The position numbers were made by a program, and so were the translations under genes. 64,000 bases of DNA from Winogradskyella eximia (GTDB taxonomy: Bacteria > Bacteroidota > Bacteroidia > Flavobacteriales > Flavobacteriaceae). The stretch covers positions 472,936 through 536,935 of the forward strand of contig NZ_QRDV01000002.1 in NCBI RefSeq assembly GCF_003386165.1, written 5' to 3'. The notes under the pieces were generated by a model. It made no database searches and was not told the origin of the DNA. It saw only the letters and a program-made list of their open reading frames with translations. This document shows, in pieces, positions 13,981 to 30,204 of this stretch. The stretch's first letter is position 1, and every line of letters begins with the position of its first letter.

Positions 13981-14002
13981 AAAAGACAAAAAATCATTAG
14001 CA

Positions 14003-14260: not shown

Positions 14261-14286
14261 TTGAAAAAGAGAATTACCCCTTTTTA

Positions 14287-14315
14287 AAACCACGTTGCAA
14301 AAGCAAGGTGGTTTT
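14287..14315 (+). terminator. Terminator ending the peroxiredoxin-thioredoxin-DUF6952 group
   Basis: AAACCACGTTGC (14287-14298) pairs with GCAAGGTGGTTT (14303-14314) with one mismatch, followed by TTTT. A nearly identical hairpin is found at 20333-20362, also directly ahead of a cassette leader. Confidence 0.85.
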
Positions 14316-14534
14316 TGCTTTTAATACCGTTTCAATTCCTATGAGTTAGCTATAACCTATATACATTAGAGGATTGCAACTTGGCTTTTATCTGAGAAAA
14401 CCAGTACGTAACTTTTCATATAGATTTTTAACGAAATACACTTAACTTCGTTGCTAGAATATAAAAAGCTACTATATCTTGCTCTATTTTCGGGATATGA
14501 GTAATAAAAGTTACTGTAAAACGAGTTGTACACC
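14316..14534 (+). repeat. Leader-type segment in front of the first cassette
   Basis: No gene is visible in this stretch. Its last 40 bp (14491-14530, GGGATATGAGT..ACGAGTTGTA) match 20556-20595 at 34 of 40 positions, and both copies follow the same kind of AAACCAC..GTGGTTT terminator. The right edge is GTTGTACACC (14525-14534), the reverse complement of GGTGTACAAC at the end of the following unit. It could be an attI-like site, a cassette promoter region or another attC subtype. Confidence 0.5.
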
Positions 14535-14555
14535 ATTAAACCGAATCGAAAATAA

Positions 14556-14975
14556 ATGACATATAAATATTCTATTTGCCATCCTGAAAAAGAAAATATT
14601 GAATATAGAAATAGTCCAATATCGGGAAATGAAGTTATAGAAATAGCTAAAAATTATCCTTGGATTGAAAAGCTGAAATTTTCAGATTCATTGAACCCAG
14701 AAAATATTCATTACAGTCCTTCTCTTGATTTTAACTGCATTCAAAACGGAAAAAGTTTCTGTTTAACTGCTAATTATGATAAGAACGAAAATCTTGAATT
14801 CTCTCTGTGGTATAATAGACCAAAAAAAGTAAAAATTTTATTTGGATTATTAGGAGAAAAAGAAAAAATGGTTGTTGACGATATTTGGGGTTTTAGTTTA
14901 GAAAAATCCTTGAAATACTTGGAGCATTTTGTGAATGGAAACCACTCATTGATTGAAGAATTATTTAAAAAATAA
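14556..14975 (+). CDS. Hypothetical protein, cassette gene
   Basis: 139 residues, soluble, no signal peptide, no family recognised. The start lies 22 bp after the cassette edge and the stop TAA is one base before the GGTGTACAAC edge of the following palindromic site, a spacing typical of an integron cassette gene. The protein has mixed alpha/beta character with aromatic residues (YPWIEKLKF, LEFSLWYNRP) and a C-terminal basic-acidic helix. Because neighbouring cassettes carry defence systems, a defence or antidote role is possible, but nothing in the sequence shows it. Confidence 0.6.
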   Translation: MTYKYSICHPEKENIEYRNSPISGNEVIEIAKNYPWIEKLKFSDSLNPENIHYSPSLDFNCIQNGKSFCLTANYDKNENLEFSLWYNRPKKVKILFGLLGEKEKMVVDDIWGFSLEKSLKYLEHFVNGNHSLIEELFKK

Positions 14976-14976
14976 C

Positions 14977-15110
14977 GGTGTACAACACCGTATATAATTT
15001 ATTGCTAGTTCTAGCCTACTTACGAAAATCCTCGCGGATTTTCTATTCGGTTTTTATTTACTAAATTACGTGCTAAACCACGCAACAAACCATATACAAA
15101 CACGTTTGCC
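14977..15110 (+). repeat. attC-like recombination site 1
   Basis: A 134-bp site. It begins GGTGTACAAC (14977-14986), the exact reverse complement of the cassette start at 14525-14534. The outer stem CCGTATAT pairs with ATATAC..CAC near 15092-15103. An inner hairpin GAAAATCC (15024-15031) pairs perfectly with GGATTTTC (15036-15043). It ends with GTTTGCC (15104-15110). The centre carries CTAAATTACGTGC, shared with the other sites. Confidence 0.7.
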
Positions 15111-15140
15111 ATTTAAACAAACCTTAATAAGACTTGAAAA

Positions 15141-15614: not shown

Positions 15615-15628
15615 TCCAATAGTATTTC

Positions 15629-15642: not shown

Positions 15643-15697
15643 TGCATAGGCTTTCAAAAACTATGAATTTTGTTCTATAAATAAAATTTAAAGTATA

Positions 15698-16108: not shown

Positions 16109-16152
16109 TGTGAAATTACTGGCTTTATAAATTACGTGAGCTGAATAAAAAC

Positions 16153-16293
16153 GGCATACAACAATGTATAAAAGCAATAGCGGTTCTGGTGTAAACTTGA
16201 ACCGTTATTGCTTTTATTTAACTATATTGCTTATTGAGATGTAAGTGCAGATAAATCCGCTACTACTCTTATACTAAAGACTAAACGTTGGGC
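16153..16293 (+). repeat. attC-like recombination site 2 (divergent subtype)
   Basis: Starts GGCATACAAC (16153-16162) and ends GTTGGGC (16287-16293), matching the classical RYYYAAC / GTTRRRY rule closely. A strong inner hairpin pairs AAAAGCAATAGCGGTTC (16170-16186) with GAACCGTTATTGCTTTT (16199-16215) with one G-T wobble. That hairpin could also end the doxX transcript. Its inner sequence differs from sites 1, 4 and 5. Confidence 0.55.
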
Positions 16294-16315
16294 GTAATAT
16301 TGAAATCCTTCGAAT

Positions 16316-16897: not shown

Positions 16898-16911
16898 TTA
16901 AAAATTCATTT

Positions 16912-16927
16912 ATTGAACTTGTTCAAT
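16912..16927 (+). promoter_or_regulatory. Crp/Fnr-type operator upstream of the metallo-hydrolase gene
   Basis: ATTGAACTTGTTCAAT is a 16-bp perfect palindrome containing TTGA-N6-TCAA. Downstream lie TTG (16931-16933) and CATCTTTG (16950-16957), a near-match to TAnnTTTG. The operator centre is 37.5 bp before the end of the -7 box, about -43 from a likely start point, an activator position. Confidence 0.72.
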
Positions 16928-16980
16928 GTTTTGAAGTAGGTAATGATCGCATCTTTGTACCATCATTAAATACAAACAAA

Positions 16981-17871
16981 ATGAAATCAATTATTTCAAC
17001 AGCATTATTCACAATTTTAATTTTATTCAAAATGAACGCACAAGCACAAAGTTTTAAAACAATAGAAACAAACAAATTTAAACTTCAAGTTTACAACGCA
17101 TCAGAAAACAGTTTTGGCGTAGCATCAGTAATTATATCTGGTAAAAACGATGCCGTATTAATAGATGCACAATTTACATTAGCAGAGGCAGAACAAGTTG
17201 CTCAAGAAATCAAAAACTCAGGTAAAACCTTAACGACTATTTATGTGTCTCATGGTGACCCTGATTTTTATTTCGGATTAGAAGTATTCAAGAAATATTT
17301 TCCTGAGGTTACGGCTTATGCATCGCCTGCAACAATAGAACATATAAAAGCGACAGCTCAAAAGAAATTAGAAGTTTGGGGCGAAAGATTAGGTGATAAA
17401 ATTACGTTTAACGTTATTTTACCTCAAGTTCTAAAAGAAAATTATATTGAGTTAGAAGACGAAAAACTAGAAATCATTGGATTAGACGATTTCCCAAAAA
17501 GAACCTTTGTATGGATTCCATCAATTAAAACAGCTTTAGGCGGAATTAATGTGTTTGGCACAACATTTAATGTATGGATGGCAGATGCACAAACAACAGA
17601 AGCACGTAATAACTGGGTATCAATCCTAAATACCATCAGTGATTTAAAACCTGAAATAGTAATTCCTGCACACGCAAATACAAATTCAGATTTTACTATT
17701 GATGCTGTAAACCACACTAAAAATTACATTCAATTTTATGAAGAAGCTTTAAAAAGCAATACTACTTCAGAAGAATTAATAGCAACAATAAAATCAAAAT
17801 ATCCGAATTTAACTTTTGAAACAGCGTTAGTGCTAGGAGCAAAAGTGAACACAGGAGAAATGAAATGGTAA
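16981..17871 (+). CDS. MBL-fold metallo-hydrolase, exported
   Basis: 296 residues with a signal peptide (hydrophobic ALFTILILFKMNAQAQA-like core, cleavage near AQAQ/S). The metallo-beta-lactamase fold is shown by VIISGKNDAVLIDAQ, the metal motif region YVSHGDPDFYFG and IPAHAN. The usual HxHxDH is replaced by H-G-D-P-D-F, so metal binding is non-canonical or reduced, as in some known MBL-fold branches. It is preceded by a Crp/Fnr gene and operator and overlaps the next gene by 7 bp, so the three probably act together. The substrate is unknown. Confidence 0.82.
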   Translation: MKSIISTALFTILILFKMNAQAQSFKTIETNKFKLQVYNASENSFGVASVIISGKNDAVLIDAQFTLAEAEQVAQEIKNSGKTLTTIYVSHGDPDFYFGLEVFKKYFPEVTAYASPATIEHIKATAQKKLEVWGERLGDKITFNVILPQVLKENYIELEDEKLEIIGLDDFPKRTFVWIPSIKTALGGINVFGTTFNVWMADAQTTEARNNWVSILNTISDLKPEIVIPAHANTNSDFTIDAVNHTKNYIQFYEEALKSNTTSEELIATIKSKYPNLTFETALVLGAKVNTGEMKW

Positions 17872-18329
17872 AACCTATAACAATTATCAACTTGACATTG
17901 CTTTTAGTAGTGTCAAGTTGTTCGTTTAAACAGCAAACTATGACAAATTTAGAAATCATAAAAAGTACATATGAAGGTAAAACTTCAGAAGAAAACGGTA
18001 AGAACTTGGCCAAACATGTTGCTGAAAATATCAGTTGGACAGAAGCCAAAGGTTTCCCTTATGCAGGAACTTATGTTGGTTTAGAAAGTGTGACCGAAAA
18101 TGTTTTTCAACGCTTAGGTAGCGAGTGGATTGATTATAAATTTTCACCCGAAGATTATATAGCAAACAAAGACAAAGTAGTTGCTTATGGCACATATTCG
18201 GGCACCTATAAAAAAACGAACAAGTATTTTGAAGCACGGGTTGCCCATATCTGGAAACTAAACAATGGTAAGATTATCAGTTTTGAGCAGTTTGTAGATA
18301 GCAAATTGGTTGACGAAGCAATACGTTAA
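17865..18329 (+). CDS. SnoaL/NTF2-like lipoprotein
   Basis: 154 residues. It has a lipoprotein signal (LLLVVSSCS), then a cone-shaped SnoaL/NTF2-like domain (IIKSTYEGKT.., AENISWTEAKGFPYAGTYVGLESV, VAHIWKLNNGKIISFEQFVDS). This fold binds or converts small hydrophobic molecules, and such proteins often accompany MBL-fold hydrolases. The 7-bp overlap with the hydrolase gene implies translational coupling. The end is followed within a few bases by TATGCCCAAC, the cassette edge. Confidence 0.8.
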   Translation: MVKPITIINLTLLLVVSSCSFKQQTMTNLEIIKSTYEGKTSEENGKNLAKHVAENISWTEAKGFPYAGTYVGLESVTENVFQRLGSEWIDYKFSPEDYIANKDKVVAYGTYSGTYKKTNKYFEARVAHIWKLNNGKIISFEQFVDSKLVDEAIR

Positions 18330-18334
18330 AACAC

Positions 18335-18652
18335 TATGCCCAACACCGTATAATAAGATGGACTCAATTAATCCTTATAAAATAAATGTTGCGATTTATA
18401 ACAAATGTGCCTGCACCAAGTTATGAATTACTAATTAAAAGAGAATATGAATAGACATTTTAGATAATTAATGGTGTGATTATATTATTCGCTCTAATTT
18501 GTGGATACTATGGATTTAGAAAAAAAGCCAGCAGGTAAAACCATGTATAATTAATTGGGTAGTGCACTGCCAACTTACTAGCATTCCTGCGGAACATGCT
18601 ATCTGTGATATATTTGCTAAATTAGGTGCTTAACCATACACAAACACTATTT
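18335..18652 (+). repeat. Composite attC-like site 3 with a gene remnant
   Basis: It begins TATGCCCAAC (18335-18344), complementary at 9 of 10 positions to the cassette start GTTGGGCGTA (16287-16296), then CACCGTATAAT. After about 170 bp comes a 23-codon open stretch (18467-18538) reading like the end of a membrane protein (..ILFALICGYYGFRKKASR), then a second half-site (CCATGTATAATTAATTG..GCTAAATTAGGTGCTTAACC..CATACACAAACAC). The final GTT is lost (CACTATTT). It looks like a fusion of two sites around a decayed cassette. Confidence 0.5.
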
Positions 18653-18663
18653 AAATCATACCC

Positions 18664-19233
18664 ATGAAAAACTTACACAACTATATCCAATCGCGATGTG
18701 CCCTATCGCAAACCGATAGCAGTTTAGTGGAAACCTATTTTACCTCCCAAAATGTACCAGCCAACACCCTACTCTTAGAAGCCGGAAAAACAGAACGCTA
18801 TGTGTATTTTCTAAGTGAAGGCATTGTAAAAGGCTATGAAAATGTAGATGGTAAAATTGTAGTGCAACATTTAGTAGCCGAACACGACTTTTTCACCTCC
18901 CTAGAGAGTTTTATGACTGAAACTCCTGCTCCAGACTATTACGAAACCATTACCGATTGTAAACTACTTAAAATCTCTAAACCAGATTTCGAGTTAATTC
19001 AAGCGCAATCGACATTTTGGAGCGACTTTATAAAAACGGTCACCAACGAGCATCTCAATTGCAAAATAGAACGCGTTAAAGATTTCCAAGTATTAACAGC
19101 TAAAGAACGCTATCTAAAATTTATAACACAACAGCCTAAACTAGCCCTAAACGTCTCTATAGACAATATCGCTTCCTTCTTAGGTATGGAACCACAATCC
19201 TTAAGCCGGATTAGAAAACAGATCACTATCTAA
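18664..19233 (+). CDS. Crp/Fnr-family transcriptional regulator
   Basis: 189 residues. Effector domain: LLLEAGKTERYVYFLSEGIVKGYENVDGKIV and EHDFFTSLESFMTETPAPDYYE. C-terminal winged helix: VSIDNIASFLGMEPQSLSRIRKQI. It has no Fnr cysteines. It is the third Crp/Fnr gene in 4 kb. The base composition is slightly richer in G and C than the neighbouring cassettes. The target is probably the NAD-dependent epimerase-type gene 62 bp downstream. Confidence 0.87.
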   Translation: MKNLHNYIQSRCALSQTDSSLVETYFTSQNVPANTLLLEAGKTERYVYFLSEGIVKGYENVDGKIVVQHLVAEHDFFTSLESFMTETPAPDYYETITDCKLLKISKPDFELIQAQSTFWSDFIKTVTNEHLNCKIERVKDFQVLTAKERYLKFITQQPKLALNVSIDNIASFLGMEPQSLSRIRKQITI

Positions 19234-19236
19234 CAT

Positions 19237-19250
19237 TTGTTATTTTTCAA
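19237..19250 (+). promoter_or_regulatory. Possible degenerate Crp/Fnr operator
   Basis: TTGTTATTTTTCAA differs from TTGA-N6-TCAA at one half-site base. It lies 29.5 bp (centre to box end) before GACCTTTG (19266-19273), a weak -7 box. The spacing differs from the other two operators, so this is tentative. Confidence 0.3.
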
Positions 19251-19295
19251 CACGGCATTACGGCAGACCTTTGCTCAAACAATAAAACAATAGTT

Positions 19296-20300
19296 ATGAG
19301 CAAAGACTTAGCCTTAGTAACAGGTGGCAATGGCCATTTAGCAAACAATCTAATCCGTTTGTTACTATCCAAAAACCAAAACGTAAGAACTACCGTTAGA
19401 GATTTAAATAACACCGCACCTTTTAAAGGTTTAAATGTTGAGGTGGTACAAGCAGATCTTCTAGACAAAGCAACCCTAAGAAAAGCATGTAAAGACGTCA
19501 CGCACATCTATGCCGTAGCCGCCAACTTTAGCATGTGGGCAAAAGATCCAAAAACGGAGATTTACGACAACAACCTAAAAGGCACACAAAATGTGTTCGA
19601 TATCGCCAAAGCATGTGGCATTAAAAACATCGTCTATGTAAGTTCTGTAGCAGCATTAGACTTTAACACCTTGCCTGCTAACGTAAATAACGGTTATAAT
19701 ACAGACCGAAGAAATTGGTATTACAATTCTAAAAACGATTCAGATCAACTGGCTTTAGCCTTAGGTAGAAAATACAACATCAGAACCGTTCTCATTTTAC
19801 CATCGGCAATGATTGGCAGCCATGCCCACAAACTCAGTTATTCTAACAACTTAGTGTATCAAATTTTAAAAGGCGAAATCCCTGTAGACACCAATGTCAC
19901 CTTAAACTGGATAGATGTAAAAGATGTGGCTTTTGGCGCATACCAAGCCATGCTAAAAGGCAAAGACCAAGAACGCTATATTCTCTCTAACCCAACACAC
20001 ACCACATTACAAGACAGTGTAAACATAGCGGCAAATCTGTATCCAGAATTAAACCTAAAAACCCCTAAAAAAGTACCCAAATGCCTATTGTACACGGTTG
20101 CTGGCCTCATGGAATTCAGCAGTAAACTCACAGGAAAAGAACCCTTATTGCAACGGCATTATTTAGATATGTTTTATGGACTAAAACAAGACTATGACAT
20201 TAGTAAATCTAAAAAAGAACTCAACTTTAATCCTAAACCATCAAAACAAGCTTTAGAAGAAGCACTGACCTACTTAAAAACGGACTGGAAAGCGCAGTAA
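19296..20300 (+). CDS. NAD(P)-dependent epimerase/dehydrogenase (extended SDR)
   Basis: 334 residues. The N-terminal Rossmann motif is LVTGGNGHLANNLIRLL; KDVTHIYAVAA and IVYVSSVAAL follow, and the catalytic YxxxK appears in WYYNSKNDSD. It resembles dihydroflavonol-4-reductase-like or nucleoside-diphosphate-sugar epimerase members of the extended SDR class. The substrate cannot be deduced. It follows a Crp/Fnr gene in the same regulator-then-target arrangement as doxX and the MBL hydrolase. A terminator follows. Confidence 0.85.
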   Translation: MSKDLALVTGGNGHLANNLIRLLLSKNQNVRTTVRDLNNTAPFKGLNVEVVQADLLDKATLRKACKDVTHIYAVAANFSMWAKDPKTEIYDNNLKGTQNVFDIAKACGIKNIVYVSSVAALDFNTLPANVNNGYNTDRRNWYYNSKNDSDQLALALGRKYNIRTVLILPSAMIGSHAHKLSYSNNLVYQILKGEIPVDTNVTLNWIDVKDVAFGAYQAMLKGKDQERYILSNPTHTTLQDSVNIAANLYPELNLKTPKKVPKCLLYTVAGLMEFSSKLTGKEPLLQRHYLDMFYGLKQDYDISKSKKELNFNPKPSKQALEEALTYLKTDWKAQ

Positions 20301-20332
20301 AGCAACAAAGAGTATACTATAGTTTAATCATA

Positions 20333-20362
20333 AAACCACATTGCGAAAGCAAGGTGGTTTTT
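20333..20362 (+). terminator. Terminator after the epimerase gene
   Basis: AAACCACATTGC (20333-20344) and GCAAGGTGGTTT (20349-20360) pair around GAAA, followed by TT. It is nearly the same hairpin as at 14287-14315. Confidence 0.85.
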
Positions 20363-20599
20363 AGGTGTTATACGGTTTTGTTTTTTATAGTTTACGGCTA
20401 CGGTTTACCGTAATGAATCTAAAACAGAAGGTTGTAGCTTCGCTTTTGTATTTAAAAAATATACGTAGTTCTACGTATTGATTGACTTATAAATAACGAT
20501 TATGTTTGTGATAGCTCTTTAATGTATAAATGTTAGGATTAACTTGGTATATTTAGGGGATATGAGTCATAAAAGTTATTATATGACGAGTTGTAAGCA
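20363..20599 (+). repeat. Leader-type segment in front of the Kiwa-like cassette
   Basis: No gene is seen. Its last 40 bp (20556-20595) match 14491-14530 at 34 of 40 positions; a weaker match lies around GGTTGTAGCTTCGCTTTTGT versus ATTGCAACTTGGCTTTTAT. The right edge GTTGTAAGCA (20590-20599) is the exact reverse complement of TGCTTACAAC at 22000-22009. It also holds a small palindrome, TACGTAGTTCTACGTA, near 20463. Confidence 0.5.
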
Positions 20600-20626
20600 A
20601 TTTAACCAAACCAATAAACATAAAGA

Positions 20627-21166
20627 ATGAATTTTATTTATAGGCTCTTATTGACTTTCAACGCTACCTCATTGATTATTGTTGTTTATCTGGTAAAAGA
20701 AGAAGTTCTCATTAACAATTTGAATTGCTACCTTTTAGGACTTCCAAATTACATTTCCTATGTTTTGTATTTTCTAATTCCAATTTTATTGACTTTTTTA
20801 AGCCTTATAATTGCGAGATATTTAAGCAAAGACAATATTTCTATGGGAACTATAAAAAGTATTGAACAAGCTAATAATGCTTTTTTACCAAGTTATTTAG
20901 GATACTTTTTTGTTGCACTAAGCATACCATATATTGACACATTAATCTTTGTATTTGCAATTCTGTTTGTTTTTACTTTTTTATCTCAAACATTATATTT
21001 CAATCCGCTTTTTTTAATATTTAAGTATCATTTCTATTATTTGACAACCACGAATGAAATAAAAATTTTCATCATTACTCGTAGAGTTTTAAAAGACCCA
21101 AAGAACACAGAATTTGAACAGTTAAGAAGAATTAATAATTTTACATTTATAGATTTAACTAAATAA
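20627..21166 (+). CDS. kwaA: Probable KwaA, membrane subunit of Kiwa defence
   Basis: 179 residues with about four membrane helices (LLLTFNATSLIIVVYLV; YVLYFLIPILLTFLSLIIARYL; LGYFFVALSIPYIDTLIFVFAILFVFTFL) and a short cytoplasmic tail (IFIITRRVLKDPKN). Size, topology and the gene order, with a DUF4868-like partner starting 2 bp after its stop, match KwaA of the Kiwa anti-phage system. KwaA forms a membrane complex with KwaB that is reported to respond to phage. The identification rests mainly on the partner, because small membrane proteins carry few diagnostic motifs. The start is 28 bp after the cassette edge. Confidence 0.65.
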   Translation: MNFIYRLLLTFNATSLIIVVYLVKEEVLINNLNCYLLGLPNYISYVLYFLIPILLTFLSLIIARYLSKDNISMGTIKSIEQANNAFLPSYLGYFFVALSIPYIDTLIFVFAILFVFTFLSQTLYFNPLFLIFKYHFYYLTTTNEIKIFIITRRVLKDPKNTEFEQLRRINNFTFIDLTK

Positions 21167-21168
21167 TT

Positions 21169-21993
21169 ATGAATCATTTACTTGCCAAAAAATCAAGACA
21201 AAACGGACAATTTGTTAAAATAATGTCTGATGAAAATGTATTCGAGCTACCTGATGATTTAGACAATCCTCACGAGTATGATACCGATTATAAATTAGAA
21301 GATGATGAGTGGTTTGCAATTGGCGAATTATCTGAAACAGAATATATAATAGACTTTCTTACAAACGATTTTAATTCAGCAGAATATAACCAAATCGTTA
21401 ATGCAGATTATTCAAGTTTAAGCTATCTATGTTCCTATCAAAATGACCGTTATTACTTTTTTCAAAAATTATCGAAAAGTCAAACCATAAATAGAAAATG
21501 GTTTCCATTAAATAACGAACCAGAATTACATTCAGAAAATCCTATTATCGTAATTAAGGATATAGCTGATGCAATTTATGATAAAACTGATGACATATTA
21601 TATTTCAAAAAATTGACTTCCATCACAACGATTTTTACAGGTATTGGAGAACTTTACCGAGAGGCAACGCAAGCTGATACAGAAACTTTTTTGGAAAATG
21701 ACTTTATAAATCTTGTAGATGATTATGATGCTACAAAAGTTAAAAAAGCAAATAGAAAAAGAATAGCGATGGCGATGGATACTTTTAATAATTTCAATCC
21801 AGCACAAAGAAATTCAATATATGGTTATATTAAAGAATATTGCAATGAATTAGAATTTTCAGATGACGAAGAATGCTTTACTATTGGAACAGAAGAAAAT
21901 CTTAAACAATTATTATATGGGATTGAACAACGTTATTATACAACTCTAATTGGAAATGAAAAAAGATTAGCAAATTCCGTTACAGCGATGTAA
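21169..21993 (+). CDS. kwaB: Probable KwaB (DUF4868), effector subunit of Kiwa defence
   Basis: 274 residues, acidic, soluble. The C-terminal two thirds resemble DUF4868: IVIKDIADAIYDKTDDILYFKKLTSI.. TIFTGIGELYREAT, then KKANRKRIAMAM, then TIGTEENLKQLLYGIEQRYYTTLI and a final RLANS. KwaB binds DNA and associates with KwaA at the membrane in characterised Kiwa systems. It is somewhat shorter than the usual ~315 residues. It lies 2 bp after kwaA and its stop is followed within 7 bp by the cassette edge TGCTTACAAC, so the pair fills one cassette exactly. Confidence 0.68.
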   Translation: MNHLLAKKSRQNGQFVKIMSDENVFELPDDLDNPHEYDTDYKLEDDEWFAIGELSETEYIIDFLTNDFNSAEYNQIVNADYSSLSYLCSYQNDRYYFFQKLSKSQTINRKWFPLNNEPELHSENPIIVIKDIADAIYDKTDDILYFKKLTSITTIFTGIGELYREATQADTETFLENDFINLVDDYDATKVKKANRKRIAMAMDTFNNFNPAQRNSIYGYIKEYCNELEFSDDEECFTIGTEENLKQLLYGIEQRYYTTLIGNEKRLANSVTAM

Positions 21994-21999
21994 AAAAAC

Positions 22000-22138
22000 T
22001 GCTTACAACACCGTGTATAATTCATTGCTAGTTATAGCATACTTACGAAAGTCCTCGCGGACTTTCTATCTGTGATTTATTTGCTAACTTTAGTGCTTAA
22101 AACACGCAACGAAATCATACACAAACACGTTAGCAGAA
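22000..22138 (+). repeat. attC-like recombination site 4
   Basis: It begins TGCTTACAAC (22000-22009), exactly complementary to the cassette start GTTGTAAGCA at 20590-20599. The outer stem CCGTGTAT pairs with ATACACAAACAC. The inner hairpin GAAAGTCC (22047-22054) pairs with GGACTTTC (22059-22066). It ends GTTAGCAGAA (22129-22138). Compared with site 1, both the outer and inner stems carry paired (compensatory) substitutions. Confidence 0.72.
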
Positions 22139-22177
22139 ATGAGAAAACTGTAACTAAATAACAAACCACAAAAACAA

Positions 22178-22975
22178 ATGCCAATATCAGGAGTTAGAAA
22201 AATCGAAAATGAAAATTACTCAATTTATTATATTGATTTTTTCTCTGACGAATTCAAACAAATTATTAGACAGCAATTACAAGGTATTTGGAGTGGTTTC
22301 TCTGAAGCAGATAGTTTACCTGAATATTATTCTTATAAACACACATTAGAATCTTTTTTAGAACGTTTCACGCCAAAGTCAATTGAGACTAAAAAAGGAA
22401 TGATTGGTGAGTTATTAGCACATATTTTACTTAATAATGAGGATAATAATTTAACATCATTATCAATTCTAAAAAACAAAGAAGAAAAAAGTATAAAAAA
22501 AGGATTCGATATTATTTATTGTCACCTTGATCAAGATAAATTATGGTATTCGGAAGTCAAATCCGGGAAAAGTGAATCTGGAACAGACAATTCAACTTCT
22601 TATAATCTTATATTACAAAATAGAGCAAAAACAGGAATTGCAGCAATGATTGATGAAAATCGAAATTCCCTTTGGGAAAGTGCTCTTTATGATGTTTCTG
22701 CAATGATTAAAGAAGATGAAGGAAAATTAGAATTAAAAAAATTACTTTCTGATGATTCACCTAAATTAAATCCAATCCAAAAAAAGAATGTAATTCTAAT
22801 TTCTGTTTTATACCATAATCTTATTGATGAAATTGAAGAAGCTAGTGTTTCTAATTTCTTAAATACAACCAAAATTGAAGATATATTTGAAGATGTTATA
22901 ATTATTTCAATTCAAAAAAATGCCTTTGAAACAGTTTCAAATTTCCTAAGTAGTGAAATTACTAGTGCAATATGA
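22178..22975 (+). CDS. hamA: HamA (DUF1837), nuclease subunit of Hachiman defence
   Basis: 265 residues, soluble. A PD-(D/E)xK-type nuclease core is visible: GMIGELLAHILL with Glu78, KKGFDIIY with Asp111, and YSEVKSGK with Glu126 and Lys128. Size, this motif order and the directly linked helicase match HamA of the Hachiman anti-phage system, in which HamA is a DNase held inactive by the helicase HamB until DNA damage or phage infection. Its stop overlaps the hamB start by four bases (ATGA), implying translational coupling. The start is 40 bp after the GTTAGCAGAA cassette edge. Confidence 0.82.
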   Translation: MPISGVRKIENENYSIYYIDFFSDEFKQIIRQQLQGIWSGFSEADSLPEYYSYKHTLESFLERFTPKSIETKKGMIGELLAHILLNNEDNNLTSLSILKNKEEKSIKKGFDIIYCHLDQDKLWYSEVKSGKSESGTDNSTSYNLILQNRAKTGIAAMIDENRNSLWESALYDVSAMIKEDEGKLELKKLLSDDSPKLNPIQKKNVILISVLYHNLIDEIEEASVSNFLNTTKIEDIFEDVIIISIQKNAFETVSNFLSSEITSAI

Positions 22976-25461
22976 ATAGTGTAAAAGAAATATCGCTAAA
23001 AGAATATAGAAAAGTTTTAAAAAGCGAACCTTCGACTTACTTTCAAAAAAGTTACATAAAACTACAACTTGGAGAAAATTTAAATAATACAGAAATTTTT
23101 CATTTATTAAAAAATGCTATTATATTTTCAAATTTTGGAGATTTAGATTTACAAAAACTTGGATACAAAATCATTGTAACTTATTCAAATAAATATTCAG
23201 ATTATAAACCTTTATATGATTTTGCGATTAACAAAGGGTATATTCCTATATCGAAGTTAGTTGAATCAAAATATTCTAATGATGATTTACACAATCATTT
23301 CTTCAATCTCTTTTTTTCTGCATTTCAAGAAAATTTCAGAGAAAAGAATTATTATATATCAAATGGACAAAAAAAATTAATTGAGTTCTCTACAGAGAAT
23401 AACTCAAATTTTGTCCTTGTAGCACCTACTTCTTATGGGAAATCAGAAATTATAGTAACCAAAGTTTTCTCTAATTTAGATAAAAAGGTTTGTGTTATTG
23501 TACCAAGTAAAGCTCTTCTAGCACAGACCAAAAAAAGACTATTAAAAAATTCAAGTGAAAATAATCTTCAAAGAATTATTACTCACCCAGAAATGTACAA
23601 AGGAAGTGAAAGAGATTTTGTTGCAGTTTTGACTCAAGAACGGCTTTTACGCTTATTACAAAAAAATCCTTCTTTAAAATTAGATATTGTACTTATAGAT
23701 GAAGCTCATAATTTATTTGGTGATAAAGAAGACGATGGTAGGTCTATTCTTTTGGCACAAACAATAATAATATTAAAAAAGAGAAATGATAATATAATCC
23801 TCAATTTCTTCTCACCTTTCATATCAAATCCAGATAATTTAAAAGTAAATCAAATAAATTATGAAATTACATCTCAAAATACTGAAGAATTTATAAAGAC
23901 TGAAAAATATCTAATTTGTGATCTATATGAAACATCTGGTGAATTAAAAATTTACGAGCAATTTTCAAATAAATTTATAAATACTTCGACTTATTATAAT
24001 AATACAATTGATTTGTTAAATGGTGAGAAATCAAGTAAAAATATAATATATCTAAATCGTCCAAAACATATAGAAGAATTTTCAGTTGAACTTGCCAATA
24101 ATAATACTAATAGCGAAATAATAAATAATGAAATTGTAGCCACAATATCAGACTTTATTCATCCTGACTATAATTTAATAAAATGTATTAAAAAAGGTAT
24201 AGTTTATCATCACGGAGGAATGCCTGAAATAATTCGCCTTTATGTTGAGAAAATTTTTAGTGAAAATAGTAACCTGGAATTTGTAATTACAAGCTCTACT
24301 CTATTAGAAGGAGTAAATATTCCTGCCGAAAAAATATTCTTGCTTTCTACTAAAAAAGGACGTAAAAATTTATCCACTTCTCAATTTAAAAATTTAATTG
24401 GTCGTGTAAATAGATTTAGTGAAATATTTAGTACTGAAAATGGTAATTTAAAACTGCTTGAGCCTAAAGTTTATGTAATCAAAAGTAAATTCGAAAATAA
24501 AAGAGCAAATATTGAAAATTTCATAACTACAAGAGCACGTACCGAGATAAAAATAAATGATGAAGTAAATAATTTATTATTAAAAGATAAGGATACATTA
24601 AACGAATCTCAAAAAGACAATCTCAATAAGTCTTTAGAATATTTAGAAAACATTGAACCTAATTCAACAGATTTAGAAGATGTAAATTATGTCCAATCTG
24701 AGATTGCAAAATTGTGTTTTAAAAACAATATTTTTGATTTTGATATCAAGCTATCAGAACCAAGATTAATAATGAATCTTGCTAATTACAAATCTACTTT
24801 ATTTCCTATAATTAAAGATAGTAATCAATTAATCGAAGCTATATATTCTATATTTTTCAATGAAATTAATATTACTGATAATAATATTAATCGTTTAAAA
24901 TATCCTGCTGCAAGAAGATTCTATGCTATGATTTTAAATTGGAGGAGTTCAAGTGCTTCTTATAAAGAAATGATAGGCAGTTTTATAAGTTATTGGAGTT
25001 CACTGAGAGGAGAAAACTTATTGATTTATGTTGGAACAAAATGGGGTACAGACAAAAGAAATTTCACAGACCATCAACCTCTTTATATAGATTTAAGAAA
25101 AAGGGATAATATTGATAGAATAAACATTGCAATTATTAGAATAAAAGAAGAGCAAGATTTTGTAGAGTTTAATCTTTTAAAGTATATAGATATACTTGCT
25201 GAATTAAAACTTATTGATATTGACTTTTATGAACAAGTTAAATACGGAAGTTCTGACAAAAGAATTATTACATTATTAAAAAACGGTTTTTCTATTGAAC
25301 TTGCTAAAGCTATTACAAAGGAAGAATACCAAAACTTAGTTGTTATAAATTACCTACTAGATAAAATAATAATTAGAGACGAAATAATAAATGAAATGGA
25401 AATAAATGGAGAGAATAAAATTCTTATTTTCGAAATAAAATATCATATAAATGAACAATAA
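22972..25461 (+). CDS. hamB: HamB, superfamily 2 helicase of Hachiman defence
   Basis: 829 residues. Helicase motifs in order: a Q-like motif near residue 133 (NGQKKLIEF), Walker A APTSYGKS at 151-158, motif Ia PSKALLAQ near 178, DEAH at 243-246, and the C-terminal lobe ITSSTLLEGVNIPAEKIF with NLIGRVNRF. These fit the Ski2-like helicase HamB, which senses DNA and controls HamA. The C-terminal ~300 residues match no domain I can name. The gene overlaps hamA by 4 bp; its stop lies 5 bp before the cassette edge TTCTGTCAAC. Confidence 0.82.
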   Translation: MNSVKEISLKEYRKVLKSEPSTYFQKSYIKLQLGENLNNTEIFHLLKNAIIFSNFGDLDLQKLGYKIIVTYSNKYSDYKPLYDFAINKGYIPISKLVESKYSNDDLHNHFFNLFFSAFQENFREKNYYISNGQKKLIEFSTENNSNFVLVAPTSYGKSEIIVTKVFSNLDKKVCVIVPSKALLAQTKKRLLKNSSENNLQRIITHPEMYKGSERDFVAVLTQERLLRLLQKNPSLKLDIVLIDEAHNLFGDKEDDGRSILLAQTIIILKKRNDNIILNFFSPFISNPDNLKVNQINYEITSQNTEEFIKTEKYLICDLYETSGELKIYEQFSNKFINTSTYYNNTIDLLNGEKSSKNIIYLNRPKHIEEFSVELANNNTNSEIINNEIVATISDFIHPDYNLIKCIKKGIVYHHGGMPEIIRLYVEKIFSENSNLEFVITSSTLLEGVNIPAEKIFLLSTKKGRKNLSTSQFKNLIGRVNRFSEIFSTENGNLKLLEPKVYVIKSKFENKRANIENFITTRARTEIKINDEVNNLLLKDKDTLNESQKDNLNKSLEYLENIEPNSTDLEDVNYVQSEIAKLCFKNNIFDFDIKLSEPRLIMNLANYKSTLFPIIKDSNQLIEAIYSIFFNEINITDNNINRLKYPAARRFYAMILNWRSSSASYKEMIGSFISYWSSLRGENLLIYVGTKWGTDKRNFTDHQPLYIDLRKRDNIDRINIAIIRIKEEQDFVEFNLLKYIDILAELKLIDIDFYEQVKYGSSDKRIITLLKNGFSIELAKAITKEEYQNLVVINYLLDKIIIRDEIINEMEINGENKILIFEIKYHINEQ

Positions 25462-25466
25462 GTAAC

Positions 25467-25626
25467 TTCTGTCAACACCGTATATAATCCATTGCTAATT
25501 CTAGCCTACTTACGAAAATCCTCTCGAATTTCATATTCAATTTGTATTTACTAAATTACGTCCGTAACCAAGCCACACCCAAGCGCAGCACACAAGCAAA
25601 GCAAACCATACACAAACAAATTGCCA
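25467..25626 (+). repeat. attC-like recombination site 5, partly decayed
   Basis: It starts TTCTGTCAAC (25467-25476), which pairs with the Hachiman cassette start GTTAGCAGAA at 8 of 10 positions plus one G-T wobble. The conserved body follows (CACCGTATATAAT, CTTACGAAAATCCTC, TATTTACTAAATTACG), but the inner hairpin right arm is mutated (CGAATTTC), an insertion lengthens the right half, and the terminal GTT has become ATT (AAATTGCCA). It is probably poorly active. Confidence 0.6.
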
Positions 25627-25637
25627 GTAATCCCAAA

Positions 25638-26729
25638 ATGAACGCAGAATTAGAAAACCTACAAGCGACAATAAAAAGAAAATACAGTTTTAAATACAAA
25701 CCTGAATGTTCTGAATCTTTTAAAACAGACATTAAAGAGAGTCAAATAATTCCGTTAACCATTGAGGTTTTTAAAATATTAGAATGGCCTGTTGTTTTTA
25801 AAGATAAAAATTCCGTTGAAGCTAAAATAAAAGCCAACTGGAATAAACTGACCGAGAAAATAACCATTACAAAAAAGGTTTCTGGGAGAATAGAAGTTCA
25901 TAGCAAAACTGTTAAAGGTGGAAATTTTACTGATTTCGGTAGAAATTCAAAAAGAACAGGTTTATTTATTCTCCTTTTTAAAAAATTAGCCACTGAATAT
26001 AATGAAAGTGGAAAACTTGTAGAATTAGAAACAGAACTAGAGCAACAAGACAGTTGGGCTGATTATGAAATTCCAACAGAATTACCAAAACCCAAAGAAT
26101 TTCCAAAACCTAATGTAACGTTATCAATAATTGGTGGTCTCATTATCGCGATTCTATTTGGATATTTTGTTGCATTTTTATCTGTTTATTTCATCTATAT
26201 TATTGGCATTTATGAACTCTGTATTGGCATTGGCATCGGATATTTATTTGGAGAAGTTTTAAAGAAAACTAATTACGTTGAATTTAAATCAATTCAGTTT
26301 ATGGTTGGTGGCATGTTAATTATAATGTTTATTACCAGTCAGTTTACTGCGTACAAATGGATGATTTCAGAAAACAATATTCCTGGAATTGGCTTTTTCG
26401 AATTTATAAAAATGCAATTGGAGCATGGCTTAACTCTAAAAGATTTAAATACAGGATGGATTGGACTTACTTTAAGTTGGCTGTTTCAAATAGTGTTTCC
26501 TTACTTTTTAGCGATTGCAAAAATTGCAGGAACTACAGCCAATTTTATAATTGAAAAAATTCCAGAAGAGGTTCTCGAATACACAATTTATCTTTTTGAT
26601 ATGGGAAAATTAGAAAGTGAAGTAAGAGCTGAACTATCACAAAAAGGTTGGAAGAAAAGATCGGATCAAGACGATGTTTTTCAAGCTATTGCAGAGATAA
26701 GCGCATTTCAACAAATGAATAGAGAATAA
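25638..26729 (+). CDS. Hypothetical protein with membrane segments
   Basis: 363 residues from ATG 25638; an upstream in-frame start at 25542 lies inside the attC-like site and is rejected. Residues ~1-130 form a soluble domain common in Bacteroidota proteins of unknown function (FKILEWPVVFKD..SVEAK, IEVHSKTVKGGNFTDFGRN). Residues ~155-310 hold four to five membrane helices. The C-terminus is a short helical tail (MGKLESEVRAELSQKGW). The start is 12 bp after the ATTGCCA edge. The function is unknown. Confidence 0.65.
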   Translation: MNAELENLQATIKRKYSFKYKPECSESFKTDIKESQIIPLTIEVFKILEWPVVFKDKNSVEAKIKANWNKLTEKITITKKVSGRIEVHSKTVKGGNFTDFGRNSKRTGLFILLFKKLATEYNESGKLVELETELEQQDSWADYEIPTELPKPKEFPKPNVTLSIIGGLIIAILFGYFVAFLSVYFIYIIGIYELCIGIGIGYLFGEVLKKTNYVEFKSIQFMVGGMLIIMFITSQFTAYKWMISENNIPGIGFFEFIKMQLEHGLTLKDLNTGWIGLTLSWLFQIVFPYFLAIAKIAGTTANFIIEKIPEEVLEYTIYLFDMGKLESEVRAELSQKGWKKRSDQDDVFQAIAEISAFQQMNRE

Positions 26730-26789
26730 AAGGAACAACCACTAAAACCATAAGAAAGCGTACAACTATACTTCCCAATTAAAGAACAC

Positions 26790-28025
26790 ATGACACCATT
26801 ACATCAGCATTACGCCATTGAAGACACTGCACATTCACCACAAAAGCATTGGTTATCGCACTTACTTAATGGCTCGTATAAATTACCAGGATTAGAAGGC
26901 AAAAAAGGGGTGTTGTTTTCAAATTCTATTTTAGAAACCTATATCCAAGAAGAAGAAAAACACGATAATTTTGAGTTAACATCGGGAAAAAACAGAAGCC
27001 TTAGAACATTATCTACTGGTGAGCAAAAAAAAGCATTATTGGCTTATTTACTGCAACAAAATCCAGATTTTATAGTATTAAACAATCCTTATGAAACCTT
27101 AGACAAAGCGTCTGTGTCTCAATTGAAACAGCAATTAATAGCCTTGTCTAAAGACAGGCCTATTGTATTTATTTTCAACAGAAAAGATGATCTCTTACCC
27201 GTAATCACCCATGCCATTACTTTTGAAAAAGCGGAGCTTAAAACCGTAGTACCCATTGCAGACTATCATTTTAATAAAAAGGAATTTGTTTTTAATAAAG
27301 ACATTCCACCTGCAATAACAGCCTACTCCAATATGCCAGAAGTGCTCGTAGAGCTTAAGAATATACAGGTGAGTTATGAGGATCGTTGCATTCTAAAAGA
27401 TATCAACTGGACCATTAAAAAAAAGGAATTCTGGCATTTAATAGGTCCTAATGGCTCTGGTAAAACGACCTTACTATCTATGATTTATGGAAACAATACC
27501 AAAGCCTATGGCCAAGAGGTATATCTCTTTGGTAATAAAAAAGGCAGTGGTGAAAGTGTTTGGGAAATAAAACAGAAAATTGGATACATAAGCCCTTCAA
27601 TGTTAGACTTATTTAAACGAAGCTATACCGTAGAGCAAATGATTATTTCGGGCTTTTTTGATAGTGTTGGCTTATATCAATCACCAACTACGGCACAAAT
27701 ACATACGGCTGCACAGTGGATGTACGTTTTAAATTTAAGTCACCAAAAAAACACGGCATTTCTTAAATTATCACCAGCCGTTCAACGTTTAATATTAATA
27801 GCCAGAGCAATGATTAAGCATCCTCCTTTATTAATCTTAGATGAGCCCTTAATTAATGTCGATGATGAAGGCACAGCACTTATTTCTGCGTTAATAAACA
27901 AAATAGCAAAAGAAAGTGAGACCAGTATTTTGTTTGTTTCACATCGCGATGAGCCTAATATCCATCCAGATTTTACCTATGCCCTTTACCCTTCTCCCAA
28001 TGGTTCTCTAGGTGTCCAGAAATAA
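26790..28025 (+). CDS. Two-domain ABC ATPase, ModF-like
   Basis: 411 residues with no membrane segments. The first ATPase half is degenerate: it has the signature LSTGEQKK (74-81) and a Walker B-like stretch FIVLNNP with Asn in place of the Asp-Glu pair, but no Walker A loop. The second half is complete: Walker A GPNGSGKT (219-226), a divergent signature LSPAVQR (327-333), Walker B LLILDEP (347-353) and SHRDE. The layout resembles ModF/PhrA-like soluble ABC proteins tied to molybdate or to unknown roles. No permease gene is nearby. It lies 60 bp after the preceding gene, with no site between. Confidence 0.75.
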   Translation: MTPLHQHYAIEDTAHSPQKHWLSHLLNGSYKLPGLEGKKGVLFSNSILETYIQEEEKHDNFELTSGKNRSLRTLSTGEQKKALLAYLLQQNPDFIVLNNPYETLDKASVSQLKQQLIALSKDRPIVFIFNRKDDLLPVITHAITFEKAELKTVVPIADYHFNKKEFVFNKDIPPAITAYSNMPEVLVELKNIQVSYEDRCILKDINWTIKKKEFWHLIGPNGSGKTTLLSMIYGNNTKAYGQEVYLFGNKKGSGESVWEIKQKIGYISPSMLDLFKRSYTVEQMIISGFFDSVGLYQSPTTAQIHTAAQWMYVLNLSHQKNTAFLKLSPAVQRLILIARAMIKHPPLLILDEPLINVDDEGTALISALINKIAKESETSILFVSHRDEPNIHPDFTYALYPSPNGSLGVQK

Positions 28026-28041
28026 CAACTAGCGCAGTGTT

Positions 28042-28120
28042 GTGTTGCTAGTTGGCTATGCTTGGATGAATTCGGTTTTTATTTGCTAAATTAGGTGTTT
28101 AACCAAGCACTTTGCAACAC
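28042..28120 (+). repeat. attC-like recombination site 6 (short subtype)
   Basis: GTGTTGC (28042-28048) pairs with GCAACAC (28114-28120) and GCTTGG (28060-28065) pairs with CCAAGC (28103-28108). Between them lies the body shared with other sites, GGTTTTTATTTGCTAAATTAGGTG. It starts 16 bp after the ABC gene stop and ends 7 bp before the next start codon. Confidence 0.5.
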
Positions 28121-28127
28121 AGAAGAA

Positions 28128-29000
28128 ATGACACTAAATAAAATTTATAATATATGGAGTTTAACTAGTGAAGATGAAGACATTCAAACTCAAAATACAT
28201 CCAAATTTTATGACATTGTAAACGACATTCGTAATTCAAAATACATCTGGTCAAAACAAGACATGGATACTTTCAAAGCATTTTTAAAGCATAATGAGAA
28301 AAAATGGTTTGTTGTAAATCTATTTTCAAAATTAGACATTATTCCAGAGCAACTATTTCAACCATTTATTGAAGCGGCAATCCATGAAACAAATCCAAGT
28401 GCTAATAGATATTTTATTGAACCGTGTTTAAGAGTTTTTGGTTTTGAACGCGTATTTGAATCCTTAAACCTACACTTTCAAAATGGAAATAATGAAACAA
28501 AAATAGGTGTTTGCAAAGCTTATTATTGGGCAAGATCACCACTTGTAAGCGTGAGTAAAGGTGATGGTCCTTGTGAAACTAAAGGGTATCACCTTAAATG
28601 GAATGGTCATTATTACAGTGATTACGATAGAGATAAAGAAACGCATTATGAAATGACTGCATCTGAAGTTTCTAAATGTAAAGTTGTATTAAAAACATTA
28701 CGCATAGCAAGAAGAAAATTATTGCTAGAAGAGTTCTTAAAAAATAAAGATACTGATGTGCGTTATCAAATTAAACTTCGTTTACCTGATGACATATCCT
28801 CTTTTTCATCAGAAAATAAAGCATTAGCAAATCTGTACTTTAAAGTTTTAGCGAAAGATGTTGTACCAGACAATTATGCCGATTTACAGTTGAAAAAAAG
28901 ATTGGGGATTTTTGGGAACAATAAATTGATTAGATTCTTTTTAAAAAAGAAAAACGATCGAATTAAGAAAAAAGGATTGATAACCTTAAAAAACAAATAA
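28128..29000 (+). CDS. Hypothetical protein, possibly HEAT-like helical
   Basis: 290 residues from ATG 28128; an earlier in-frame start at 28095 is inside the palindromic site. Soluble and helical with short repeated helix pairs (SKYIWSKQDMDTFKAFL.., QLFQPFIEAAIHETNPSANRYFIEP, LNLHFQNGNNETKIGVCKAYYWA), suggestive of HEAT-like repeats but not conclusive. The C-terminus is strongly basic (FLKKKNDRIKKKG). It is the last + strand gene of the cassette region; I see no complementary edge after its stop. Confidence 0.6.
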   Translation: MTLNKIYNIWSLTSEDEDIQTQNTSKFYDIVNDIRNSKYIWSKQDMDTFKAFLKHNEKKWFVVNLFSKLDIIPEQLFQPFIEAAIHETNPSANRYFIEPCLRVFGFERVFESLNLHFQNGNNETKIGVCKAYYWARSPLVSVSKGDGPCETKGYHLKWNGHYYSDYDRDKETHYEMTASEVSKCKVVLKTLRIARRKLLLEEFLKNKDTDVRYQIKLRLPDDISSFSSENKALANLYFKVLAKDVVPDNYADLQLKKRLGIFGNNKLIRFFLKKKNDRIKKKGLITLKNK

Positions 29001-29064
29001 CGTGTTAAAATATTAGGTTGAGAAAAACTGGCGAAGCAAATCACACAAAAACACATCTAAGATG

Positions 29065-30204
29065 TTACAATTTCAATAAAAAGTCTCCAGTAAAATGCTG
29101 CTGCTCCTTTTCGGGCAATGTATGAAAACTTGCAGCTTGTACATCACGGAAGAGTCGTTCAAGGTGATGCTTTCTATAAAAACTTTGTCCACCTACAATG
29201 CCCATAGCTTTAGCCACCGTGTCCTTGCAGGCATTAGCAACCAATGTCTTTCTAGTCAATATATCAACACCCATTTTAGCTTCAGGCTGAAAATCTAAAT
29301 TATTGGTGATGGCAATCATATCGTTATGAAGCACCTTAGCCAAGGTAAGGCTATTGTTCATATCTCCTAGCATAGTAGTAATATGAGGTGATTTACGTTG
29401 TTTTACTTTTAACGTGTCAAGCGTAAGCGTCATGGCTTTCTCAGCAATGCCAACATAAGGTGCCATAGTCAATGGTAATGCAACGGTAAGCACAGCATTC
29501 CAAAACATTGGAAATTCGCCTTTCAATCTTTTCATTACAATAGCAGCATTAGGAACAAACACATTGTCAAGGGTAACCGTCTGCGAACCAGTTCCACGCA
29601 TACCAAGCGTATACCAATCATCTAATAACGCAATGCCTTCAGAAGTCATAGCAATTGTAAAGTGGATAACCTGCCAACCTTCTTCTGGATCATGATAAGG
29701 CATGCTGGTCACCAAAACATCTCCTTGTGAAGATTGGCTAGCAAATTGCTTCCGACCCGAAACCAAATAGCCTGTATCCGTTTTTATCATAGTGCCATTA
29801 GAATCAAGCCAATCACGTGCACCTGTACTCACCAAGACCAGATTGTTCTCAACCACGTCTTTTAGAAATGAACCTCCAGTGCCATGGTGTGTATATTTCC
29901 AAATATTCGCAGCAAGAAGATGTTGATGCATAGAAAGTGCCAATGCCGTAGATGGGCAATAATGGGCAATTTTCACCAATATGTCGCACATCTCCTTAAA
30001 GGTCACTCCACCTCCACCCAAGGCTTTAGGAATCATGGCCGTTAAATAGCCATTTGTTTTTAACAAGGCATAATTATCGGCCACAAATGTAGCGTTCTGG
30101 TCATGGGTAATGCCGTTTGCTGCCAATTGTTCGCCTAACGCGTCTATAAGAGACAACCAGGATTGGGAAGAGGCTTTTGTTGCTTTAGTTTTATGCATTT
30201 CCAT
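29065..30204 (-). CDS. Acyl-CoA dehydrogenase family flavoprotein
   Basis: 379 residues. An N-terminal helical domain (FVADNYALLKTNGYLTAMIPKALGGGGVTFKEM) is followed by a middle beta domain (ISGRKQFASQSS-like block VSGRKQFASQSSQGD, WYTLGMRGTGSQTVTLDNVFVP) and a C-terminal helical bundle. The fold binds FAD. It could be an acyl-CoA dehydrogenase or a flavin-dependent monooxygenase of the same fold (DszC-like); the catalytic base is not identified. The AraC regulator gene lies 32 bp upstream on the same strand and may be co-transcribed. Confidence 0.82.
   Translation of the reverse strand: MEMHKTKATKASSQSWLSLIDALGEQLAANGITHDQNATFVADNYALLKTNGYLTAMIPKALGGGGVTFKEMCDILVKIAHYCPSTALALSMHQHLLAANIWKYTHHGTGGSFLKDVVENNLVLVSTGARDWLDSNGTMIKTDTGYLVSGRKQFASQSSQGDVLVTSMPYHDPEEGWQVIHFTIAMTSEGIALLDDWYTLGMRGTGSQTVTLDNVFVPNAAIVMKRLKGEFPMFWNAVLTVALPLTMAPYVGIAEKAMTLTLDTLKVKQRKSPHITTMLGDMNNSLTLAKVLHNDMIAITNNLDFQPEAKMGVDILTRKTLVANACKDTVAKAMGIVGGQSFYRKHHLERLFRDVQAASFHTLPEKEQQHFTGDFLLKL

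What the first reader, a model, noticed from the sequence alone, without database searches (positions are those of the whole stretch)
22129..25476. Hachiman defence system as the next cassette
HamA-type PD-(D/E)xK protein (Glu78, Asp111, Glu126-x-Lys128) and a DEAH helicase overlap by ATGA and fill the unit bounded by GTTAGCAGAA and TTCTGTCAAC. Two different defence systems in consecutive cassettes suggest that this array works as a defence-gene collector.
Basis: partly seen in the sequence, partly recalled or inferred. Interest (0 to 1): 0.72.

Follow-up and report, generated by a model that had tools for sequence, protein, structure and literature searches.

The report
Hachiman cassette in a flavobacterial integron
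Two phage-defence systems (Kiwa and Hachiman) sit as neighbouring gene cassettes in a marine flavobacterium, and the machinery that collects such cassettes looks like an overlooked kind of integron whose integrase lacks a part thought to be essential.

Summary
HamA (22178-22975) and HamB (22972-25461) overlap by ATGA and match Hachiman. They fill one gene cassette between attC-type sites at 22001-22136 and 25468-25627. The cassette before it is Kiwa.

The larger result is the platform. The loci fetched from the own genome hold 67 attC-like sites, and no IntI passes the cut-off. In relatives, attC arrays lie directly behind a ~400-aa tyrosine recombinase; the own copy lacks the IntI-specific domain. 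A cassette's start is complementary to its own end: 5.57 of 7 positions in 171 cassettes, against 2.49 shuffled. Near-identical copies end at the GTT edges, one lying at attI. Six attI-like heads without an integrase gene lie in the own genome, two in this window; Kiwa, then Hachiman, follow the second.

Verdict: a Hachiman gene cassette in an integron variant with a patchless integrase and several attI-like platforms. Activity is inferred. "Defence-gene collector" is partly right: enrichment for defence was not shown.

The parts
14285..14540 (+). head A: terminator hairpin plus attI-like site; insertion point GTT at 14525 (no integrase gene beside it)
   Evidence: similar to head B and, in pieces, to L075, L082, L085; its cassette's end matches 7/7
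14525..15104 (+). first cassette of array A (ORF 14556-14975, 139 aa, unknown function)
   Evidence: GTTGTACACC at the start, complementary to its own end 7/7
14978..15111 (+). attC-like site
   Evidence: nhmmer 129 bits
18531..18661 (+). decayed attC-like site
   Evidence: nhmmer 67 bits, R' box lost
20331..20596 (+). head B: terminator hairpin plus attI-like core ATATGACGAGTT; insertion point GTT at 20590
20627..21166 (+). KwaA (Kiwa), first cassette of array B
   Evidence: PADLOC KwaA 1.9e-12
21169..21993 (+). KwaB (Kiwa)
   Evidence: PADLOC KwaB 1e-16
22001..22136 (+). attC-like site of the Kiwa cassette; R' GTTAGCAG (22129) starts the Hachiman cassette
   Evidence: nhmmer 118 bits; bottom strand of 21994-22140 folds as a long hairpin, z -3.73
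22130..25621 (+). Hachiman gene cassette, GTT edge to next R' edge
   Evidence: start GTTAGCAGAA and revcomp of end GTTGACAGAA, 5/7
22178..22975 (+). HamA, PD-(D/E)xK-type (E78, D111, E126, K128)
   Evidence: Pfam HamA 26.5 bits, cut-off 25; residues kept in the L086 homologue
22972..25461 (+). HamB, DEAH helicase
   Evidence: PADLOC HamB 2e-75; a PDB chain named HamB matches at 4e-13
25468..25627 (+). attC-like site of the Hachiman cassette, about 25 nt longer than most; following R' degenerate (ATTGCC)
   Evidence: nhmmer 81 bits, alignment
25638..28025 (+). membrane protein and ABC ATPase that follow in the array; the ABC gene sits on the other side of g32 in congeners
28048..28129 (+). attC remnant
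   Evidence: nhmmer 24 bits

Best explanation
The Hachiman pair is a gene cassette of an integron-type system. A tyrosine recombinase (401 aa, contig C2 of the same genome) recombines folded single-stranded attC hairpins at the G^TT of R'. It inserts cassettes at attI-like sites: one directly behind its own gene, and others dispersed in the genome without an integrase gene. In this window, array B starts at the attI-like head at 20590; Kiwa is its first cassette and Hachiman its second. Once expressed, HamA/HamB presumably act as in other Hachiman systems: the helicase senses DNA damage or foreign DNA and releases the HamA nuclease (recalled, not tested). Shown by sequence: cassette anatomy, own-end complementarity, recombinase-attI-array linkage in relatives, copies with GTT edges. 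Inferred: catalysis by this recombinase, single-strand substrate, expression, and phage defence.
For: HamA/HamB profiles. 67 attC-like sites (E<=0.01) in the loci fetched from the own genome. Start-to-own-end complementarity 5.57/7 in 171 cassettes against 2.49 shuffled and 2.82 for the site as it stands (164); own genome 5.42 in 38. Restored attC folds better than the hybrid site in 123 of 136, mean 5.2 kcal/mol. Recombinase loci: 99 sites in 15 of 18, against 0 in 18 control stretches of about equal length from 14 of the same genomes; reversed sequence gives 1. Six heads without an integrase gene in the own genome all 7/7, own integrase attI cassette 6/7; 18 of 26 scored integrase loci 5/7 or better. 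Near-identical copies with GTT edges: L148 99.8% over 932 nt with one copy at attI (GTT at 1506), L064 100% over 440 nt. Twelve congeners with attC sites and no Kiwa or Hachiman around the ABC gene.
Against: The recombinase scores 196.8 bits against the integron-integrase cut-off 265 and lacks the IntI-specific domain. In the own genome only one cassette follows the integrase before the contig ends in an insertion sequence, so linkage to a long array is seen in relatives only. 8 of 26 integrase loci do not show the attI-cassette match, and taking the best of 1-6 candidate GTTs favours high scores. 3 of 18 recombinase loci show no site with the own-genome model. None of 12 homologue loci outside the family shows a site of this sequence family. 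The Hachiman cassette's edges are imperfect (5/7, next R' is ATT), its restored hairpin was not among the 136 folded, and no copy elsewhere could be compared. The closest Hachiman pair (HamB 65%, L086) is not in a cassette: the nearest model match lies over 4 kb away.
Confidence: 0.82

Rival explanations
1. The arrays are a CALIN: cassettes delivered by an outside, canonical IntI, and the ~400-aa recombinase is only a neighbour with another job (Xer-like).
For: No IntI above cut-off in the own genome or in any of 149 family genomes; best sequence relative is XerA; related recombinases occur without such an array (0 of 12 loci outside the family).
Against: attC arrays lie directly behind this recombinase, in its direction, in 15 of 18 loci against 0 of 18 controls; the first cassette begins at a GTT 26-136 bp behind its stop codon and matches that cassette's own end in 18 of 26 scored loci; a near-identical cassette copy lies exactly there in L148.
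Confidence: 0.1
2. Dispersed arrays arose by occasional insertion into ordinary genomic sites (attG-type insertion), not through dedicated attI-like platforms.
For: Own arrays on L005, L009, L010, L012, L014 and L015 show no good core within 3.5 kb before the first site; attG insertion is known for classical integrons (Loot et al. 2024, seen only as a reference).
Against: Six heads have a core like the integrase attI (ATATAACNAGTT-like) and 7/7 cassettes; head B shares about 280 nt at 70% with a congener's head (L082) and about 270 nt with L075.
Confidence: 0.3
3. The block is an ordinary defence island moved by homologous recombination or an insertion sequence; the repeats are incidental.
For: The region varies between congeners; an IS110-type element sits in attC sites of the own genome; the nearest HamAB homologue lies outside any cassette.
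Against: Start-to-own-end complementarity, and copies that end at GTT edges; no transposase domain in the ten array proteins scanned with Pfam and none that I recognised by eye in the others.
Confidence: 0.05
4. The pair is a helicase-nuclease defence system near Hachiman but not functional Hachiman.
For: PADLOC HamA match is weak (0.001) and Pfam HamA only 1.5 bits over cut-off; no solved HamA is found by sequence.
Against: HamB matches strongly over nearly its whole length, gene order and overlap fit, PD-(D/E)xK residues are conserved in the homologue.
Confidence: 0.1

Closest known systems
Hachiman (HamAB)
   Same: HamA-domain protein with PD-(D/E)xK residues and a long DEAD/DEAH helicase HamB, overlapping genes
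   Different: HamA is a divergent member; carried as an attC cassette
Sedentary chromosomal integron (Vibrio type) with defence cassettes
   Same: attI behind the integrase, attC arrays with conserved sites, one-direction cassettes, R'/R'' boxes, GTT edge; defence cassettes are known there (PMC12409362, passages)
   Different: own integrase lacks the IntI-specific domain and has an extra N-terminal domain; integrase gene points the same way as the cassettes; several attI-like heads without integrase gene; end pairing reaches about position 14 with a near-fixed mismatch at 11
CALIN
   Same: attC clusters without a recognised IntI in the genome
   Different: a patchless recombinase with attI is present in the same genome and linked to arrays in relatives
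XerA / Xer recombinases
   Same: best match of the catalytic part by sequence and by Foldseek E-value
   Different: by TM-score VchIntIA is closer (about 0.70 against 0.56 for XerA); SPL-type C-terminal ending as in VchIntIA; N-terminal extension; position at attC arrays
attG insertions
   Same: cassettes outside the main array
   Different: six heads here resemble attI

Membership tests
Hachiman | HamA domain | tested here: met
   Pfam PF08878 26.5 bits over cut-off 25; PADLOC only 0.001
Hachiman | HamB helicase next to HamA | tested here: met
   PADLOC 2e-75, 7-809 of 829; ATGA overlap
Hachiman | nuclease and helicase catalytic residues | tested here: met
   E78, D111, E126, K128; GKSE; DEAH
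Hachiman | phage protection | not testable with these tools
   needs a plaque assay
Integron | attC sites with R''/R' boxes and hairpin fold | tested here: met
   of five natural (hybrid) bottom strands, three have the long hairpin as best fold and one is no better than shuffles
Integron | attI next to the integrase with GTT insertion point | tested here: met
   (18 of 26 scored loci)
Integron | integrase with IntI-specific additional domain (patch) | tested here: not met
   query 279 to 304 spans 24 aa where VchIntIA 2a3v has 67; no insertion in the 12 homologues aligned; 0 of 149 family genomes over the IntI cut-off
Integron | cassettes move as units with edges at GTT | tested here: met
   L148 and L064 copies; not testable for the Hachiman cassette itself
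Integron | recombination by the linked integrase | not testable with these tools
   needs an excision/insertion assay
Kiwa | KwaA membrane protein plus KwaB (DUF4868) | tested here: met
   PADLOC 1.9e-12 and 1e-16

The most novel reading that the evidence does not exclude
Flavobacteria, and perhaps other Bacteroidota, possess their own integron lineage: a XerA-like integrase without the IntI patch, carrying an N-terminal beta-beta-alpha-beta-beta-alpha-beta domain (weakly HARP-like; HARP is recalled as a binder of branched DNA) that takes over recognition of the folded attC. One integrase serves several attI-like platforms spread over the chromosome, some of which present defence cassettes such as Kiwa and Hachiman here and CBASS in a congener.
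Probability: 0.37. Interest if true: 0.87.

Novelty: new variant of a known kind. Interest (0 to 1): 0.77.

Why it matters
The patch domain is used to define and to pick out integron integrases (PMC9668308 and PMC2426708, passages) and is called essential for integron function (PMC8138268, passage). A patchless integrase with attI and long attC arrays would show that the domain can be dispensed with, and may explain why IntegronFinder 2.0 names only Salinibacter ruber as a complete integron in Bacteroidetes (PMC9024848, passage). Bacteroidota is listed among phyla with integrons in PMC9668308 and PMC8618304 (passages), without details in what I saw. The recombinase alignment matches in 89 of 296 Bacteroidota genomes, but by my reading of the rows only 31 match over the N-terminal domain as well, so the reach beyond flavobacteria is open. 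A reservoir of gene cassettes, including phage defence, may be uncounted. My searches of the held library listed no paper that I recognised as describing it; I read passages only, and preprints and most subscription papers are not held.

Tried and rejected
CALIN from a canonical IntI: no IntI over cut-off in the own genome or 149 family genomes. The 379-aa recombinase near C8's attC: it sits with helix-turn-helix and ATPase-like genes beside what I take for MnmE and looks like an integrative element (by eye; families not searched), so it was set aside. Folding HamA from one sequence failed (pLDDT 37) and was not used. HARP domain: Pfam 8.1e-4 in 1 of 8 N-terminal segments and 0.17 in another, both below cut-off; a profile search of the PDB gave only two unrelated weak matches, so it remains a guess. 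Bacteroidota promoter box (TAnnTTTG, recalled consensus) before the attI core: 13 of 30, mixed. Natural (hybrid) sites fold unevenly: bottom-strand z from -5.38 to -0.64 in five, and in two of them the best fold is not the long hairpin. Covariation of the inner stem is modest: 73% of cells paired against a shuffled mean of 70%, 44 double-change cells against 25 (maximum 35). Rfam: nothing in 14000-29500. Defence enrichment: not shown; the first three scans list only 25 families, so they give no exact count. After the first check of this report I lowered the probability of the novel case from 0.40 to 0.37, because most matches lack the N-terminal domain and none of 12 loci outside the family had this site family.
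Full report
The pair. HamA (22178-22975, 265 aa) and HamB (22972-25461, 829 aa) overlap by ATGA. HamB matches PADLOC HamB at 2e-75; HamA matches Pfam HamA at 26.5 bits (cut-off 25) and PADLOC HamA at 0.001. Glu78, Asp111, Glu126 and Lys128 are present and kept in a homologue whose HamB is about 65% identical to the window's. The preceding pair is Kiwa. How Hachiman works (helicase gating a nuclease) is recalled, not tested.

The repeats are attC-type sites. A window site gives 40 scored matches in the own genome, a lower bound since 40 of 73 candidates were scored; an iterated profile finds 67 sites at E<=0.01 in the loci fetched from it, the weakest at 13.5 bits. They read YAACACCGTATATAATT ... 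ATACACAAACAC-GTTRRC. If cassettes move as circles cut at G^TT, the box at a cassette's start must pair with the box at its own end, not with the one beside it. From 282 sites, 171 cassettes had clear edges (the rest were left out): 5.57 of 7 positions match the own end, 2.82 the neighbouring box (164), 2.49 after shuffling (sd 0.11). Agreement extends to about position 14 with a near-fixed mismatch at 11. The Hachiman cassette scores 5 of 7. Rejoining each cassette's two ends gives a better hairpin than the natural hybrid in 123 of 136 cases (12 worse, 1 equal), mean 5.2 kcal/mol. The Hachiman junction was not among those 136.

The recombinase. No protein in the genome passes the integron-integrase cut-off; the best is a 401-aa tyrosine recombinase at the end of contig C2. 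In 67 of 149 family genomes TIGR02249 matches at E<=1e-30, none over its cut-off. I took 18 such loci from 16 genomes; the own recombinase finds a homologue in each, and the site matches listed lie in its direction. A model made from the own genome alone finds 99 sites in 15 of the 18 (L053, L056 and L064 have none), 0 in 18 fixed-coordinate stretches from 14 of the same genomes, and 1 in the reversed sequences. Against VchIntIA the patch region of the own protein is 24 residues where IntI has 67; 12 homologues align without an insertion there. The SPL-type ending resembles VchIntIA's. The predicted model of the W. costae homologue (pLDDT 80.5, pTM 0.54) has an extra N-terminal domain; Foldseek ranks XerA first by E-value, VchIntIA higher by TM-score. 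Named carriers include Winogradskyella costae, W. sediminis, Gillisia limnaea and Leeuwenhoekiella palythoae; W. sediminis has 12 sites in the 10 kb behind the gene. The alignment matches in 89 of 296 Bacteroidota genomes (59 of 139 genera) at E<=1e-70, but many matches begin near position 100; by my reading of the rows 31 genomes match from position 27 or earlier to 370 or later. Of 16 further loci fetched, 4 are in the family (3 with clear arrays, L144 with one weak site) and 12 outside it, none with this site family; six of the 12 have the N-terminal domain. One of these six (L142) has a different repeat family with GCCCAAC and GTTGGGT boxes, read by eye.

attI and its copies. A GTT lies 26-136 bp behind the recombinase stop, and the cassette that begins there matches its own end at 5 of 7 or better in 18 of 26 scored loci. 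Three more loci had no site to score. The best of 1-6 candidate GTTs was taken, which favours high scores; the misses are L050, L058, L059, L060, L061, L064, L067 and L143. In the own genome the integrase cassette scores 6 of 7, and six heads without an integrase gene score 7 of 7: window 14525 and 20590, and one each on C5, C8, C4 and C11. Other own arrays show no good core or begin at a contig end. Head B shares about 270-280 nt at 70% with L075 and L082; head A matches in shorter pieces.

Movement. Among 209 cassettes with both edges, near-identical copies end at those edges: in L148 (same genus) 99.8% over 932 nt (offsets 0 and +13) with the second copy starting at the attI GTT; in L064 100% over 440 nt (-1 and +2). 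Most of the 135 matches listed are partial or less similar, and many begin or end inside an attC. A cassette on own contig C18 is 96% identical over 885 nt to one in another genus (L057), starting 24 nt before the GTT. Around the ABC gene next to the window's array, 12 congeners carry attC sites and none matches KwaA, KwaB, HamA or HamB at E<=1e-8; three of these stretches are short because the contig ends nearby, and only L075 shows the window's left flank. One of the twelve (L082) has a CBASS cyclase in the array. HamB is in 1 of 68 genomes of the genus and 4 of 397 of the family, own included, so the exact strain test for this cassette is open.

Defence content. PADLOC at 1e-5 over 75 own cassette ORFs shows HamB and a few single proteins within the 25 of 40 families listed; 69 congener ORFs include a CBASS cyclase and a 2TM effector; 116 family ORFs include AbiL, PD-T4-1 and Pycsar cyclases. 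A control of 36 non-array ORFs matches 14 families. That integrons hold defence systems is known for Vibrio and mobile integrons (PMC12409362, passages).

Literature. [quoted passage not shown] IntegronFinder 2.0 names one complete Bacteroidetes integron, Salinibacter ruber (PMC9024848, passages). PMC9668308 and PMC8618304 list Bacteroidota among integron phyla (passages). The patchless flavobacterial arrays are, as far as these searches show, undescribed.

Noticed in passing
G000 contig ends, at least C2, C11, C13, C14, C18 (one end) and C8, C13, C14, C17 (other end): A multi-copy element sits in attC directly after the R'' box, so several arrays, including the one behind the integrase, are cut there. 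Its transposase, read in congener L153 (1538-2509), looks like IS110 type by eye. One end of it occurs in 22 of 68 genomes of the genus, own included.
   Followed up: partly
L142:2400-10000: Behind a related recombinase in another Bacteroidota family lies a repeat array of a different sequence family with GCCCAAC and GTTGGGT boxes, possibly a second attC lineage.
   Followed up: partly
L085 and L082 (same neighbourhood in two congeners): Terminator-plus-attI-like heads recur after attC sites, so single cassettes seem to have their own head.
   Followed up: partly
window:26790-28025: The ABC ATPase gene lies inside the array here but on the other side of the conserved g32 gene in congeners, in several with an attC just before it.
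   Followed up: no
L024:784-5881: Integrase with helix-turn-helix and ATPase-like genes beside a probable mnmE, next to a contig-start attC: looks like a separate integrative element (by eye).
   Followed up: no
G000:C2, L089-L091 and many rows: The recombinase gene often lies within about 1.5 kb of a contig end, as if assemblies break at the repeats behind it.
   Followed up: partly
L037:1-70: Contig C12 starts with tandem GTTAGCA repeats.
   Followed up: no
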